This document shows, in pieces, positions 6,691-11,219 of a stretch of DNA of 43,032 nucleotides. Origin of the DNA: Actinomycetota bacterium (GTDB taxonomy: Bacteria > Actinomycetota > Thermoleophilia > Gaiellales > F1-60-MAGs149). The DNA is taken from the NCBI GenBank assembly GCA_009885805.1, contig VFJZ01000013.1, positions 1 to 43,032 of the forward strand. The letters run 5' to 3'. Within the stretch, counting starts at the first letter, position 1. Every line of letters begins with the position of its first letter. The position numbers and the translations under genes are program-made. The notes beneath the pieces were generated by a model, which was not told where the DNA came from, did not search any database, and saw only the letters and a list, made by a program, of their open reading frames with translations.

Positions 6691-7815
6691 GTGGCGACCC
6701 AGGAAGAGGTCTACGGTGGCCTCGAGCGGCCCGACCTCGACCGCGAGCTGTCCTGGGCCGAGCACGAGCTGAAGGAGCGCGAGCGGACGAAGCACGTCCA
6801 TCGCCTGCATCCGTACCTCGGGAAGTTCGTGCCGCAACTCGTGGAGGTGTGCCTGCGGCGGCACTTCGTGTCGGGCGGCCTCGTGCTCGACCCGTTCGCC
6901 GGGTCCGGCACGACGCTCGTCGAGTGCACGACCTTCGGTGCCCACGCGGTCGGCGTCGACATCTCCGCGTTCAACGCGCTGCTGTGCCGGGTCAAGACCG
7001 GCCGGCACGACCTCGATCGCCTCGCCGTGCTGCTGGCCGACGCGCTCGCCGGACTCGACGACGTCACGCCGGACGGCCCGGTCTCCGAGTACCTGGCCGA
7101 CTGGTTCGCGCCGGAGGCGCTCGCCGACCTCCTGCGGTTCCGCGCGTTGATTCCGGTGGCGGGCGACGAGGCCGACGTGATGCGCGTCGTACTCAGTCGC
7201 GCAGCCCGGTCTGCGCGCCGCGCGCCCCACCACAACCTCGAGTCGCCGCGGGTACCGGTGACCGGCCCCTACTGGTGCCACAAGCACCGTCGGACGTGTA
7301 CACCGACCACGGACGCGCGCCAGTTCCTCGTTCGTTATGCGCGCGACACGGTGAAGCGGCTGGCGGAGTACGCCGCGATCCGGGGCGAGGTCGAGGTGGA
7401 CGTCATCCACGGCGACGCGCGCCTGGCGTCGCTGCCGTCCGGAATCGACGGGCTGATCACGTCGCCGCCGTACCCCGGCCGGATCGACTACCACGGCCAG
7501 CACCGGTACGCCTACGAGCTGCTCGGCCTCCAGGACCGGCGGCCCGAGGAGATCGGCAACCCCTCGCGCGGCCTGTCGCGGGCGGCGTTCGCCGCCTACT
7601 GCGATGACGTCGCCGCCGTCTTCGCCAACGCCCGCGCATACCTGCAGCCGGGTGCGCCGGTCGTGATCGTGATCGACGATGTGCGTGATCTCTACACAAC
7701 GATTCTGGAGCAGGCCGGTCTCGAGCTCGTGACCCGCCACGTGCGGCACGTCAACCGCCGAACCGGACGTCGCGACGAGGGTTACTTCGAGGCCGTGCTC
7801 GTCGCGCGCGCCTGA
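6691..7815 (+). CDS. Orphan site-specific DNA methyltransferase (N4/N6 amino type)
   Basis: A predicted S-adenosylmethionine-dependent DNA amino-methyltransferase of 374 residues. The SAM motif LDPFAGSGTT (66-75) and the catalytic motif TSPPY (257-261) are clear, and HPYLGKFVPQLVE before motif I is typical of this group. About 180 residues separate motif I from motif IV, room for the target-recognition domain; this order (I, recognition, IV) fits the alpha class, although the DPFAGSGTT form is more usual in beta-class enzymes. A Cys/His cluster at 196-203 (WCHKHRRTC) may bind zinc. No restriction endonuclease is nearby, so it is likely an orphan enzyme with an epigenetic role. RNA as substrate cannot be excluded. 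Its 3' end overlaps recO by 34 bp. Confidence 0.85.
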   Translation: MATQEEVYGGLERPDLDRELSWAEHELKERERTKHVHRLHPYLGKFVPQLVEVCLRRHFVSGGLVLDPFAGSGTTLVECTTFGAHAVGVDISAFNALLCRVKTGRHDLDRLAVLLADALAGLDDVTPDGPVSEYLADWFAPEALADLLRFRALIPVAGDEADVMRVVLSRAARSARRAPHHNLESPRVPVTGPYWCHKHRRTCTPTTDARQFLVRYARDTVKRLAEYAAIRGEVEVDVIHGDARLASLPSGIDGLITSPPYPGRIDYHGQHRYAYELLGLQDRRPEEIGNPSRGLSRAAFAAYCDDVAAVFANARAYLQPGAPVVIVIDDVRDLYTTILEQAGLELVTRHVRHVNRRTGRRDEGYFEAVLVARA

Positions 7816-8513
7816 TCGAGCGTCTTCAGGCTGCCGCCGCTGTGCTCGGCGACGCTGTCGGCGACGATCCGCCGGACCTGGGCCAGTGCGGCGGCGGGCG
7901 GCGCGCCGGCCTCGCCGAGGGGCCGGCCGACGAGGTCTCGCAGTGCGTGCAGTGCCGCCTCGCTGAGTGAGGAGCCGCCGCAGCTCGCGCAGACGGCCCC
8001 GCCCGCGGTCACCGAGTAGCCGGTGAGGGGCCCGGCCGAGCCGCAGCTCGCGCACGCGTCGAGGTGCGGCGCCCAGCCGGCGAGGGCGACGAGCTTGAGG
8101 ATGAAGCCGAGCGCGAGGTCCTCCCGCGGCTCCTCAGCGGCGACGACGCCGAGGAAGCGCACGAGGCCGTCGAACAGCCGCTCGTTGCCGGCCTGCTCGG
8201 GAAACAGCCGCAGGACCGCCTCGGCGCCCGCGAGCGCGATCCCGAGCCGCCGGGCGTCGGCGCGGATCTCGTCGAAGCTCGTGAGCAGGTCGGCGCCGTT
8301 CACGGTCTGCATCTCGCCGCTCCCCGGCCGGAGGCGCAACTCGACGTGCGACAGCGGCTCGACCCGTGCCCCCTGACGTGACCGCGTGCGCCGCGCGCCC
8401 TTCGCGATCGCCGACACGCGTCCGTGGTGGCGTGTCTGCAGGTGCAGGATGCGGTCGGCCTCGCCGAACCGCATCGAGCGCAGCACGACCGCCTCGTCCC
8501 GGTACGGCCTCAT
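7782..8513 (-). CDS. recO: DNA repair protein RecO
   Basis: RecO anneals single-stranded DNA and loads RecA together with RecR in recombinational repair. The 243-residue protein has the N-terminal OB-fold region (DEAVVLRSMRFGEADRI...), the helical middle and a C-terminal zinc-binding block with four Cys (154, 157, 175, 178 in CASCG ... CASCG). Its 3' end converges on the methyltransferase and overlaps it by 34 bp. CATGCT, 6 nt upstream of the ATG on the minus strand, is a weak -10 candidate. In Firmicutes and many actinobacteria recO lies close to glyQ/glyS and the dikinase regulator; here these genes are about 7 kb away, consistent with an interrupted ancestral neighbourhood. Confidence 0.94.
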   Translation of the reverse strand: MRPYRDEAVVLRSMRFGEADRILHLQTRHHGRVSAIAKGARRTRSRQGARVEPLSHVELRLRPGSGEMQTVNGADLLTSFDEIRADARRLGIALAGAEAVLRLFPEQAGNERLFDGLVRFLGVVAAEEPREDLALGFILKLVALAGWAPHLDACASCGSAGPLTGYSVTAGGAVCASCGGSSLSEAALHALRDLVGRPLGEAGAPPAAALAQVRRIVADSVAEHSGGSLKTLDQARATSTASK

Positions 8514-8561
8514 GCCGGCAGCATGCCAGCCGAAGTCGGTACGGCCGCGACGACCAATTTG

Positions 8562-8602
8562 ATCTATTTGACTAGATAGGTCAGAGTGGCTAGGATGGGG
8601 CC
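8562..8602 (+). promoter_or_regulatory. Promoter and likely operator of the 8603-9492 module
   Basis: The region contains TTGACT (8568-8573), a 17-nt spacer and TAGGAT (8591-8596), 6 nt from the ATG. This is the best full -35/-10 pair in the window. The perfect inverted repeat ATCTA-N6-TAGAT (8562-8566 and 8573-8577) overlaps the -35 box, as expected for an autorepressing antitoxin operator. The stretch is strikingly A/T-rich compared with its surroundings. AGGA inside the -10 could also serve as a ribosome-binding site if transcription starts further upstream. Confidence 0.6.
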
Positions 8603-9070
8603 ATGAGTTCCATGATCGAGACGCTTCCGTTCAGCGAGGCCAAGGCTCACCTGTCGGACCTGATGACCTCGGTCGTGCACGGCTTCCAGCCGAAGGCCAT
8701 CCAGCGCCATCGGGGCAAGGAGGAGATGTTCCTCGTCCCACAGGCGCTGATGTTGGCGATGGTCGAGAACATCGCATTCCAGCCTCGAGTGTCGGTGGCC
8801 CCTGGTGAGTTCGTCGTGCGCCTGCCCGAACTGAACCTGATCGGCGGGGGCGACACGCTCGATGCCGCCATGGATGAACTCGTCGACGTCGCATCCGCCT
8901 TCGCGAAGCAGTATCTCGAGCGGCTTCGCTTCTACCAGGAGTCGGAGCATCTCGCGCGTTTCCCGTGGATCGCGAAGATCGCCTTCACTCCCGCCGAGGC
9001 CAGGCGGGGCCTGTTCGAGTCGAACCGGAAGCCGCACGAGCCACAGAAGCCGCTGGCCACGGCGTCGTGA
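8603..9070 (+). CDS. Putative chimeric antitoxin (Phd/YefM-like N-terminus, HicB-like C-terminus)
   Basis: The 155-residue protein begins like a Phd/YefM DNA-binding antitoxin: residues 5-27 (IETLPFSEAKAHLSDLM...) match the start of that fold, and 31-47 (KAIQRHRGKEEMFLVP) resemble its beta-hairpin. Residues 64-110 (VAPGEFVVRLPELNLIGGGDTLDAAMDEL with a following helix) resemble the partial RNase H-like fold of HicB antitoxins, which cover their toxin. The C-terminal 40 residues are unassigned. Translation is coupled to the next gene by a GTGA overlap, and an operator-like inverted repeat lies upstream. This is the usual antitoxin-first layout. The domain reading rests on motif resemblance only; a plain Phd-family protein with an extended tail is the alternative. 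Confidence 0.65.
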   Translation: MSSMIETLPFSEAKAHLSDLMTSVVHGFQPKAIQRHRGKEEMFLVPQALMLAMVENIAFQPRVSVAPGEFVVRLPELNLIGGGDTLDAAMDELVDVASAFAKQYLERLRFYQESEHLARFPWIAKIAFTPAEARRGLFESNRKPHEPQKPLATAS

Positions 9071-9492
9071 CGCCGGCCTCACCAACGTGGGCCGACAGCA
9101 AGCGATTTCTTGCTGCCGACGGCTGGCGTGAGATTCCGGGCAATGAGCGCGGCGGATCACGCCAGCGGCACGTCTTCTACGAGAAAGTGCTCGACGACGG
9201 GCGGGTGCTTGGAACCAGCGTCTCCCATACCGACGACAAGACCATTTCGGCAGGTCGCTTCGGCGGGATCCTGGGAACCCAGCTCGAGGTGTCCCGTCAC
9301 GACTTCTGGGGGTGCGTTCGCACGCAGACGCCGGTCGATCGGCCGGTTACCGTCGAGCCGGCTCCCGTCGAGCACGACCTCTGGGTGGTGCAGGTGCTTG
9401 TCGGAGAACTCCACCTGACGCCCGAGCAGATCTCCGAGCTCAGCGCTGAAGAAGCGGTCGAGCGCGTCCACAAGCATTGGCAGGGCGGCTGA
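9067..9492 (+). CDS. Putative HicA-like toxin with C-terminal extension
   Basis: A 141-residue protein starting at GTG 9067 inside the stop codon of the putative antitoxin. Residues 10-85 have the pattern of a HicA-like dsRBD fold: helix (SKRFLAADGWREI), a Gly-Ser loop with a following His (GGSRQRHVFYEK), strands (GRVLGTSVSH), and a final segment (GGILGTQLEVSRHDFW) resembling the helix that closes HicA. HicA toxins are mRNA interferases; here His35 is the best candidate for the catalytic His. Residues 86-141 form an acidic extension not found in classical HicA (about 60-80 residues). No other toxin family was recognised. The pair has lower GC content than its neighbours, which suggests horizontal acquisition. 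Confidence 0.6.
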   Translation: MTPASPTWADSKRFLAADGWREIPGNERGGSRQRHVFYEKVLDDGRVLGTSVSHTDDKTISAGRFGGILGTQLEVSRHDFWGCVRTQTPVDRPVTVEPAPVEHDLWVVQVLVGELHLTPEQISELSAEEAVERVHKHWQGG

Positions 9493-9516
9493 GCGGGTGC
9501 TCGGCTGCCCAACGCC

Positions 9517-10392
9517 TCAACGCGCCGCCACCGCGTCCCTGATCGCCGCCGCCGTCACCTCGGCCGCCGCGGTCTCGAGGACGAGCTGGGACGGGGCCGG
9601 GACGGCGCGGGTAGCGAGCGCGAAGGCGACATCGCCGTCGAACGCGGTCGCAGCCGGACTCGTCGCGCGGACGATCCCGGCGTGCGCGGCCCGCGCGAGG
9701 CGGTGACAGGCGAGCTTCGTGATGTCGGCATCGGTGACGAGGCAGACGAGCGTCGTCGCCTCGCCCGGGGTGGGCTCGGGAGCGTCACCGCGGAGGATCG
9801 CGGCGGTCGTATCCGCACCGGCGAGCACGGAGCCGTCGGCGGCGAAGATGTCACCGAACGCGTTGACCACCGCGATCGCTGCGATCCGGCCTCGGCCCGG
9901 CAGGTCGAGGACGGCGGCGCCGACGCCGCCGGGTACGCCGCCGCCGAGCGTCGCGACGGTCGCGCCCGTCCCCGCGCCGACCGGCCCGCGCGCGGGCCAG
10001 CCGCCGGCCGTGGCGGCGAACGCCGCCTCCAGCGCGGCGCGACCCTCGGCGGGGCCGGGCGCCACGGGCTTGCCGACGGCGCGGTCGAAGATCACCGCCG
10101 TGGGCACGATCGGCACCGGGCCGGCGGCCGTGGCGAACCCGATGCCGCGCTCCGCGAGGCCCGCCATCACGCCGTCCGCCGCCGCGAGGCCGAAGGCGCT
10201 GCCGCCGGTCAGCAGGACCGCGTCGACGCGGTCGACCGTGGCGACGGGGTCGAGCAGGGCGGTTTCGCGCGTCCCGGGCGCGAGGCCGCGCACCTCGCAC
10301 GAGCCGGTGGTGCCGGGGGGCGGCAGGATCACGGTGCAGCCGGTGCGACCCTCGGCGTCGGTGTACTGCCCGATGCGCAGCCTGCCGATCAC
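9517..10392 (-). CDS. P1-family (S58) peptidase, short form
   Basis: A member of the DmpA/P1 family of self-processing N-terminal-nucleophile hydrolases (COG3191 type), whose members include aminopeptidases and amidases. The GTG at 10392 overlaps the stop of mutM (GTGA), giving 291 residues, shorter than classical DmpA (about 370). It shows LLTGGSAFGLAAADGV (61-75), the glycine-rich GAGTGATVATLGGG (139-152), VVNAFGD (175-181) and TTLVCLVTDADITK (213-226). By analogy with the family, one of Thr213/Thr214 would be the nucleophile exposed by autocleavage. The substrate is unknown. Coupling to mutM is conserved by overlap only and gives no functional hint. A second, longer family member is at 35490-36605. 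Confidence 0.82.
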   Translation of the reverse strand: MIGRLRIGQYTDAEGRTGCTVILPPPGTTGSCEVRGLAPGTRETALLDPVATVDRVDAVLLTGGSAFGLAAADGVMAGLAERGIGFATAAGPVPIVPTAVIFDRAVGKPVAPGPAEGRAALEAAFAATAGGWPARGPVGAGTGATVATLGGGVPGGVGAAVLDLPGRGRIAAIAVVNAFGDIFAADGSVLAGADTTAAILRGDAPEPTPGEATTLVCLVTDADITKLACHRLARAAHAGIVRATSPAATAFDGDVAFALATRAVPAPSQLVLETAAAEVTAAAIRDAVAAR

Positions 10393-11219
10393 GCCCGCGG
10401 CCGCCGCTGGCAGCGAGGGCAGAGGTGCGTGCCACGCCCCGCGACCCGCGTCTTGACGATCGCGGCGCCACAGTGCGGGCACGGCTCGCCGGTACGGTCG
10501 AACACCTGGAATCGTTCCTGCATCGAGCCGTAGCCTCCCTCGGGCGTACGGTAGTCGCGCAGCGTCGCTCCCTGGGCGGCGATGCCGATCTCGAGCACGT
10601 CTCGGACCGCGGTCGCGAGCCGTGCGAGCGCTGGCCGCGTCACGGCGCCTGCGGGCGTCTCGGGATGGATCCGGGCGGCGTGCAGCGCCTCGTCGGCATA
10701 GATGTTGCCGACCCCCGCCACGAGCCGCTGGTCGAGCAGCAGCGCCTTGACAGGCGCACGCCGGCCCGCGAACGCACGGCGCAGCGTTCCGGCGTCGAAG
10801 TCGGGATCGAGCGGTTCGGCGCCGAGCCGCGCGTCGAGGAACTCCGCGAGCTCCGGCGCGCCTTCGAGGAGCTGCCAGGTGCCGAAGCGCCGCAGGTCGG
10901 TGTAGTCGACGCGGCTGCCGTCGTCGAGGTGCAGGACGGCTCGCCGGTGCGCCGGGACGGTGTCGGCGCCGACGAGGAGGTTGCCGGTCATCCGCAGGTG
11001 GACGGCGAGCGTCGAGGTGTCATCGAGGTGGACGAGCAGGTACTTTCCTCTCCGGCCGAGCCCGACGATGCGAGCGCCGCCGAGGCGCGCGGCGACCGCG
11101 GCGGGATCCTCTGGTCGGACGAGCCGTGCGTCGTCGACCTCGGCCATCGCGATAGTGCGTCCTTCGAGGAACGGCGCCAGCCGGCGTCGGACGGTCTCGA
11201 CCTCGGGCAATTCGGGCAC
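10389..11219 (-). CDS. mutM: Formamidopyrimidine-DNA glycosylase
   Basis: A base-excision repair enzyme that removes oxidised purines and nicks the site by its lyase activity. The GTG at 11219 is chosen because the mature protein must begin Pro-Glu-Leu: Pro2 is the catalytic imino nucleophile and Glu3 the acid (MPELPEVETV). Lys59 (RRGKY), the helix-two-turn-helix segment (GVGNIYADEALHAARIHP) and a C-terminal zinc finger with Cys247, Cys250, Cys267 and Cys270 are all present in 276 residues. The minus-strand hexamer TACACT, 6 nt upstream, supports the start. The gene follows deoA with about 20 bp between and overlaps the next gene by four bases. Confidence 0.95.
   Translation of the reverse strand: MPELPEVETVRRRLAPFLEGRTIAMAEVDDARLVRPEDPAAVAARLGGARIVGLGRRGKYLLVHLDDTSTLAVHLRMTGNLLVGADTVPAHRRAVLHLDDGSRVDYTDLRRFGTWQLLEGAPELAEFLDARLGAEPLDPDFDAGTLRRAFAGRRAPVKALLLDQRLVAGVGNIYADEALHAARIHPETPAGAVTRPALARLATAVRDVLEIGIAAQGATLRDYRTPEGGYGSMQERFQVFDRTGEPCPHCGAAIVKTRVAGRGTHLCPRCQRRPRA

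What the first reader, a model, noticed from the sequence alone, without database searches (positions are those of the whole stretch)
8562..9492. Candidate chimeric toxin-antitoxin module: Phd/HicB-like antitoxin with extended HicA-like toxin
The first protein joins a Phd/YefM-like start (residues 5-47) to a HicB-like segment (64-110). The second resembles HicA (10-85) with an extra acidic tail. They overlap by GTGA. An operator-like inverted repeat (ATCTA-N6-TAGAT) covers the -35 of a good promoter. The module is visibly richer in A/T than its surroundings. Mixed Phd DNA-binding and HicB neutralising parts in one antitoxin would be an unusual combination.
Basis: inference. Interest (0 to 1): 0.65.

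Follow-up and report, generated by a model that had tools for sequence, protein, structure and literature searches.

The report
Phd-type HicB antitoxin with HicA toxin
The two overlapping genes are a toxin-antitoxin pair of a layout catalogued in 2024 (an RNA-cutting HicA-type toxin with a small extra tail, kept in check by an antitoxin that joins a Phd DNA-binding end to a HicB neutralising part), so it is a real but already recognised kind of system that has probably inserted between two housekeeping genes.

Summary
At 8603-9070 and 9067-9492 lie two genes overlapping by GTGA. Protein 1 matches Pfam PHD_like (PF12910) over most of its length; residues 6-45 match Phd/YefM, and residues ~66-106 align with HicB by profile comparison and predicted fold. 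Protein 2 has a HicA fold (its four best matches are solved HicA toxins; Z 8.7 to 1whz), an invariant histidine aligned to the HicA catalytic His, and a three-helix C-terminal tail behind a Pro-containing linker. All 16 of 299 class genomes with PF12910 carry the toxin gene adjacent. A sister genome lacks the module between recO and the S58 peptidase gene, and the module is the most A/T-rich ~940 bp of the window, so it was probably acquired. This is what Gerdes (mBio 2024, PMC10865869) called Class 6 hicBA: HicB with an N-terminal Phd/YefM domain, and HicA with a C-terminal 'Shared Domain'. The combination is therefore not new; this is a new member of a known kind. One correction: the ATCTA-N6-TAGAT palindrome is no better than chance and is not conserved. 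What is conserved upstream across 19 loci is a run of tandem 9-bp direct repeats (TGACYAR-type here) overlapping the promoter. Function is inferred; nothing was tested experimentally.

The parts
8551..8577 (+). Operator-like array of three tandem 9-bp repeats: CGACCAATT / TGATCTATT / TGACTAGAT
   Evidence: Upstream alignment with seven relatives; lag-9 self-similarity summed over 19 loci is 225, against a shuffle mean of 145 and maximum of 161, and no other lag from 5 to 15 exceeds 152; window alone p=0.03
8562..8577 (.).
   Evidence: 25% of shuffles contain an equivalent repeat; not shared by relatives
8568..8596 (+). Promoter-like TTGACT-17-TAGGAT; the -10 ends 6 bp before the ATG, so the transcript would be leaderless or nearly so (inference)
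   Evidence: Only promoter-like site in 7800-10500, 0.1 expected
8603..9070 (+). Antitoxin: PHD_like (PF12910); N-terminal Phd/YefM DNA-binding and dimerisation part (~1-53), HicB-like partial RNase H part (~60-111), C-terminal helices
   Evidence: Pfam 59 bits against a cut-off of 27; predicted fold matches 3k6q, Z 14.0 over 129 residues; HicB profile P=8e-7
9067..9492 (+). Toxin: HicA-type dsRBD fold (residues ~6-85, invariant His35) plus C-terminal three-helix tail (residues ~88-141)
   Evidence: Predicted fold matches HicA structures 1whz, 5yrz, 4p78, 6hpb; profile P=1.7e-7 to HicA; helices 105-113, 119-123, 127-140
9067..9070 (+). GTGA overlap of toxin start and antitoxin stop (likely translational coupling)
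   Evidence: the same 4-bp overlap in L024-L029

Best explanation
A chromosomal type II toxin-antitoxin operon of the hicBA 'Class 6' layout. The upstream gene makes a HicB-type antitoxin whose N-terminal Phd/YefM domain dimerises and binds the 9-bp repeat operator over the promoter (autorepression), while its HicB-like part binds and blocks the toxin. The downstream, translationally coupled gene makes a HicA-type RNA-cleaving toxin (catalytic His35) carrying a three-helix C-terminal domain of unknown role. Shown here: gene layout, both folds as predictions, conserved His, near-exclusive pairing, conserved repeats, and absence of the module from a sister genome. Inferred from known HicAB and Phd systems: RNA cleavage, neutralisation, repression and any phage-defence role.
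For: Antitoxin is PF12910 over most of its length, with Phd/YefM homology in 12 of 13 relatives and YefM/Phd/3k6q hits. HicB part: profile-profile P=8e-7, against 0.16 for the antitoxin-versus-HicA control; HicB structures 6g1c, 6u0i, 6g1n, 6hpb at Z 4.8-5.5. Toxin: top four structural matches are all HicA (Z 8.7, 5.8, 5.8, 3.6); profile P=1.7e-7 with His35 aligned to the HicA GSH histidine, against 0.017 for the HicB control; 6 of 14 relatives hit PF07927, best 1.3e-5. Pairing: 16 of 16 PF12910 genomes in 299 have the toxin gene adjacent (Fisher p about 1e-24). Same architecture described as Class 6 in PMC10865869.
Against: The window toxin alone has no Pfam hit, and of the HicA GSH motif only the His is invariant in this family. 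HicB structural Z-scores (about 5) are not far above dsRBD and other alpha-beta matches at 4-4.8; the sequence profile carries that step. No PADLOC or NCBIfam model matches. The complex was not modelled.
Confidence: 0.9

Rival explanations
1. PHD_like antitoxin with a RelE/ParE-type toxin, as the Pfam description of PF12910 implies.
For: PF12910 is described as 'Antitoxin of toxin-antitoxin, RelE / RelB'; Gerdes reports RelE toxins with a Shared Domain next to Phd/YefM antitoxins.
Against: The partner matches HicA by profile and fold, and no member hits a RelE family.
Confidence: 0.03
2. The pair has drifted from toxin-antitoxin function: a PHD_like repressor and a HicA-fold RNA-binding partner that regulates without toxicity.
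For: Beyond the His, the GSH motif is not kept; no toxicity data for Class 6 were found in the held library.
Against: Invariant His35, retained overlap, operator and pairing across the class, and patchy presence like a mobile module.
Confidence: 0.07

Closest known systems
Class 6 hicBA modules (Gerdes 2024, mBio, PMC10865869)
   Same: Antitoxin gene first, overlapping genes, HicB with N-terminal Phd/YefM domain, HicA with a C-terminal ~55-60 aa three-helix Shared Domain behind prolines; mostly in Actinomycetes
   Different: Relatives here are Solirubrobacterales/Thermoleophilia-type genomes; direct sequence comparison with the published examples was not possible; the conserved 9-bp repeat operator is not mentioned in the passages read
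PHD_like family PF12910 / PDB 3k6q (SWOL_0700 antitoxin, Syntrophomonas wolfei)
   Same: Whole antitoxin in sequence and predicted fold (Z 14.0)
   Different: About 14-15% identity; Pfam names RelE/RelB as the system, whereas the partner here is HicA-like
Classical hicAB (E. coli, T. thermophilus TTHA1913)
   Same: Toxin fold, catalytic-His position, HicB-type neutralising part
   Different: Gene order reversed, DNA-binding domain is Phd/YefM at the N-terminus rather than HTH/RHH at the C-terminus, toxin has a tail

Membership tests
Class 6 hicBA (Gerdes 2024) | Antitoxin gene upstream, genes overlapping or closely linked | tested here: met
   8603-9070 then 9067-9492, GTGA overlap; conserved in L024-L029
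[quoted passage not shown]
   PF02604 in 12 of 13 relatives; YefM 2a6q 1.7e-5 and Phd 4zlx 6.7e-5 with the family profile
Class 6 hicBA (Gerdes 2024) | Antitoxin has a HicB partial RNase H part | tested here: met
   Profile-profile P=8e-7; HicB structures among the best matches
Class 6 hicBA (Gerdes 2024) | Toxin has a HicA dsRBD fold | tested here: met
   1whz Z 8.7, 70 residues, 2.3 A; 5yrz, 4p78, 6hpb next
Class 6 hicBA (Gerdes 2024) | C-terminal domain of about 55-60 aa, three helices, prolines at the junction | tested here: met
   Residues 88-141 (54 aa), three helices, low-confidence Pro-containing linker; tail aligned in 15 members
Class 6 hicBA (Gerdes 2024) | Tail homologous to the Shared Domain of the published HicA and RelE examples | not tested
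   Published sequences were not compared; a tail profile found only this toxin family above noise in 299 class genomes
HicA toxins | Catalytic histidine | tested here: met
   His35 invariant in 14 toxins, aligned with the GSH His of 35 HicA sequences
HicA toxins | RNA cleavage and growth inhibition | not testable with these tools
   Needs expression and RNA assays

The most novel reading that the evidence does not exclude
The conserved array of 9-bp direct repeats is the operator of Phd-type HicB antitoxins and differs from the palindromic operators of classical hicAB systems: antitoxin dimers would line up along tandem sites over the -35 and spacer.
Probability: 0.35. Interest if true: 0.3.

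Novelty: new member of a known kind. Interest (0 to 1): 0.2.

Why it matters
It gives an independent check that PF12910 antitoxins pair with HicA-type toxins (16 of 16 in this class), although Pfam labels the family RelE/RelB, and it supplies a conserved candidate operator for a class of module that, in the papers found, has only been described by bioinformatics.

Tried and rejected
Palindromic operator ATCTA-N6-TAGAT: chance level and not conserved. A 10-bp repeat model scored no better than shuffles for most loci; the period is 9. Foldseek alone gave no significant PDB match for the toxin (best E 0.4); the VIA-align second look found HicA. Direct PDB sequence search with the toxin profile found nothing significant. 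No relatives in viral contigs or in phage records; one distant plasmid hit, Arthrobacter. Tail profile on other proteins such as RelE in the class: only weak, chance-like hits.

Full report
Checking the observation. The 943 bp from the operator to the toxin stop has the lowest G+C (0.638) of any such stretch in the window (mean 0.725). A sigma-70-like site TTGACT-17-TAGGAT at 8568-8596 is the only one in 7800-10500, with 0.1 expected. Its -10 ends six bases before the ATG, so a leaderless transcript is likely (inference). The inverted repeat ATCTA-N6-TAGAT exists at 8562-8577, but a perfect repeat of that sort (5-bp arms, gap 0-10) appears in 25% of shuffles of the same 60 bp.

The antitoxin. 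The protein matches Pfam PHD_like (PF12910) over residues 4-128 at 59 bits against a cut-off of 27, and its first 45 residues match PhdYeFM weakly. All 13 family members match PF12910 and 12 match PhdYeFM. The family profile hits the solved antitoxin 3k6q along its length (2.5e-18) and the N-terminal part of YefM and Phd structures (1.7e-5 and 6.7e-5). The AlphaFold2 model (mean pLDDT 81) matches 3k6q at Z 14.0 over 129 residues, followed by HicB structures over residues 51-147 at Z about 5, not far above other small alpha-beta folds. A profile of ordinary HicB proteins gathered from the same class aligns with the antitoxin profile at residues 66-106 with P=8e-7; the mismatched controls gave 0.16 (antitoxin against HicA) and 0.017 (toxin against HicB). 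The chimeric reading is thus supported, but the chimera is one established family.

The toxin. Alone it has no Pfam hit, but 6 of 14 relatives hit HicA_toxin (best 1.3e-5). Its profile aligns with 35 HicA sequences (gathered) at P=1.7e-7, with His35, invariant in the family, on the GSH histidine; the importance of that histidine for HicA toxins is reviewed in PMC11594946. The model (mean pLDDT 86.5) has an alpha-beta-beta-alpha core, a low-confidence linker and three C-terminal helices. The four best VIA-align matches are all HicA: 1whz, 5yrz, 4p78 and 6hpb (Z 8.7, 5.8, 5.8, 3.6); Foldseek alone did not rank them significantly. One relative, in G033, has a toxin that stops right after the core and so lacks the tail.

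Pairing and distribution. PF12910 is found in 16 of 299 genomes of the class and the toxin in 17. Fifteen genomes are shared, and inspection of the sixteenth PF12910 genome (G295) showed an adjacent toxin too, so 16 of 16 antitoxins have the partner (Fisher p about 1e-24, computed after that inspection). Of the two toxin-only genomes, one match (G097) lies at a contig edge and one (G224) is marginal. Six close relatives were fetched from public genomes, mostly Solirubrobacterales or Thermoleophilia assemblies, and all keep the 4-bp overlap.

The upstream region. Aligning eight promoters showed TGACYAR-type units in a row. A model-free test over 19 loci gives a summed lag-9 self-match of 225, against a shuffle mean of 145 and maximum of 161 in 300 trials; no other lag from 5 to 15 exceeds 152. 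The 19 loci are related, so they are not fully independent. The window itself is among the weaker examples (p=0.03). More distant members have GTACAA-type units; by eye several also keep the 9-bp spacing, but individually not all reach significance. In L003, L024, L025 and L026 the second unit reads as the -35 with a 17-bp spacer to a -10-like hexamer (read). Repression by occlusion is the natural inference.

Location and origin. The module lies between recO (7782-8513, minus) and a peptidase S58 gene (9517-10464, minus), with mutM beyond (Pfam). In sister genome G001 the recO and S58 matches lie about 60 bp apart with no module between them, so the module was gained here or lost there; its low G+C favours gain. 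The same genome also carries an ordinary hicBA pair on another contig.

Comparison with what is known. Gerdes (mBio 2024, PMC10865869) defined Class 5 and 6 hicBA: reversed gene order, HicB with an N-terminal Phd/YefM domain, often overlapping genes, and in Class 6 a HicA with a 55-60 aa three-helix C-terminal Shared Domain behind prolines, mainly in Actinomycetes. Every structural feature that could be tested here is met; sequence homology of the tail to the published Shared Domains was not tested. Full-text searches found no experimental study of this class in the held library, which lacks most subscription journals. Conclusion: new member of a known kind; mechanism well supported by analogy, toxicity and neutralisation untested; the main addition is the conserved 9-bp repeat array as candidate operator.

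Noticed in passing
G000 contig C60:311-732 (L049 311-732): The same genome has a separate, ordinary hicBA pair (HicB 76 aa, HicA 64 aa, 4-bp overlap), both matching Pfam below the cut-offs.
   Followed up: partly
L002 1908-2156: In G033 the toxin ends right after the HicA core (stop at 2156), so this member lacks the C-terminal tail; a natural comparison for what the tail does.
   Followed up: partly
L016-L020, L022 upstream regions: Distant members carry GTACAA-type units, by eye often 9 bp apart, in place of TGACYAR, suggesting that the operator sequence diverged while the spacing was kept.
   Followed up: partly
L028: The record carrying one close relative is titled Bifidobacterium breve, but its toxin and antitoxin are identical to those of G141 (L009), a genome placed in this class; the title is probably a mislabelled or mixed assembly.
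   Followed up: no
L026 (same module as L008): A HicB-like ORF lies a few hundred bases downstream of the module in this relative, so a second hic locus may sit next to it.
   Followed up: no
window 6691-7815: A DNA methylase gene (PF01555 N6_N4_Mtase) lies next to recO; no restriction partner was looked for.
   Followed up: no
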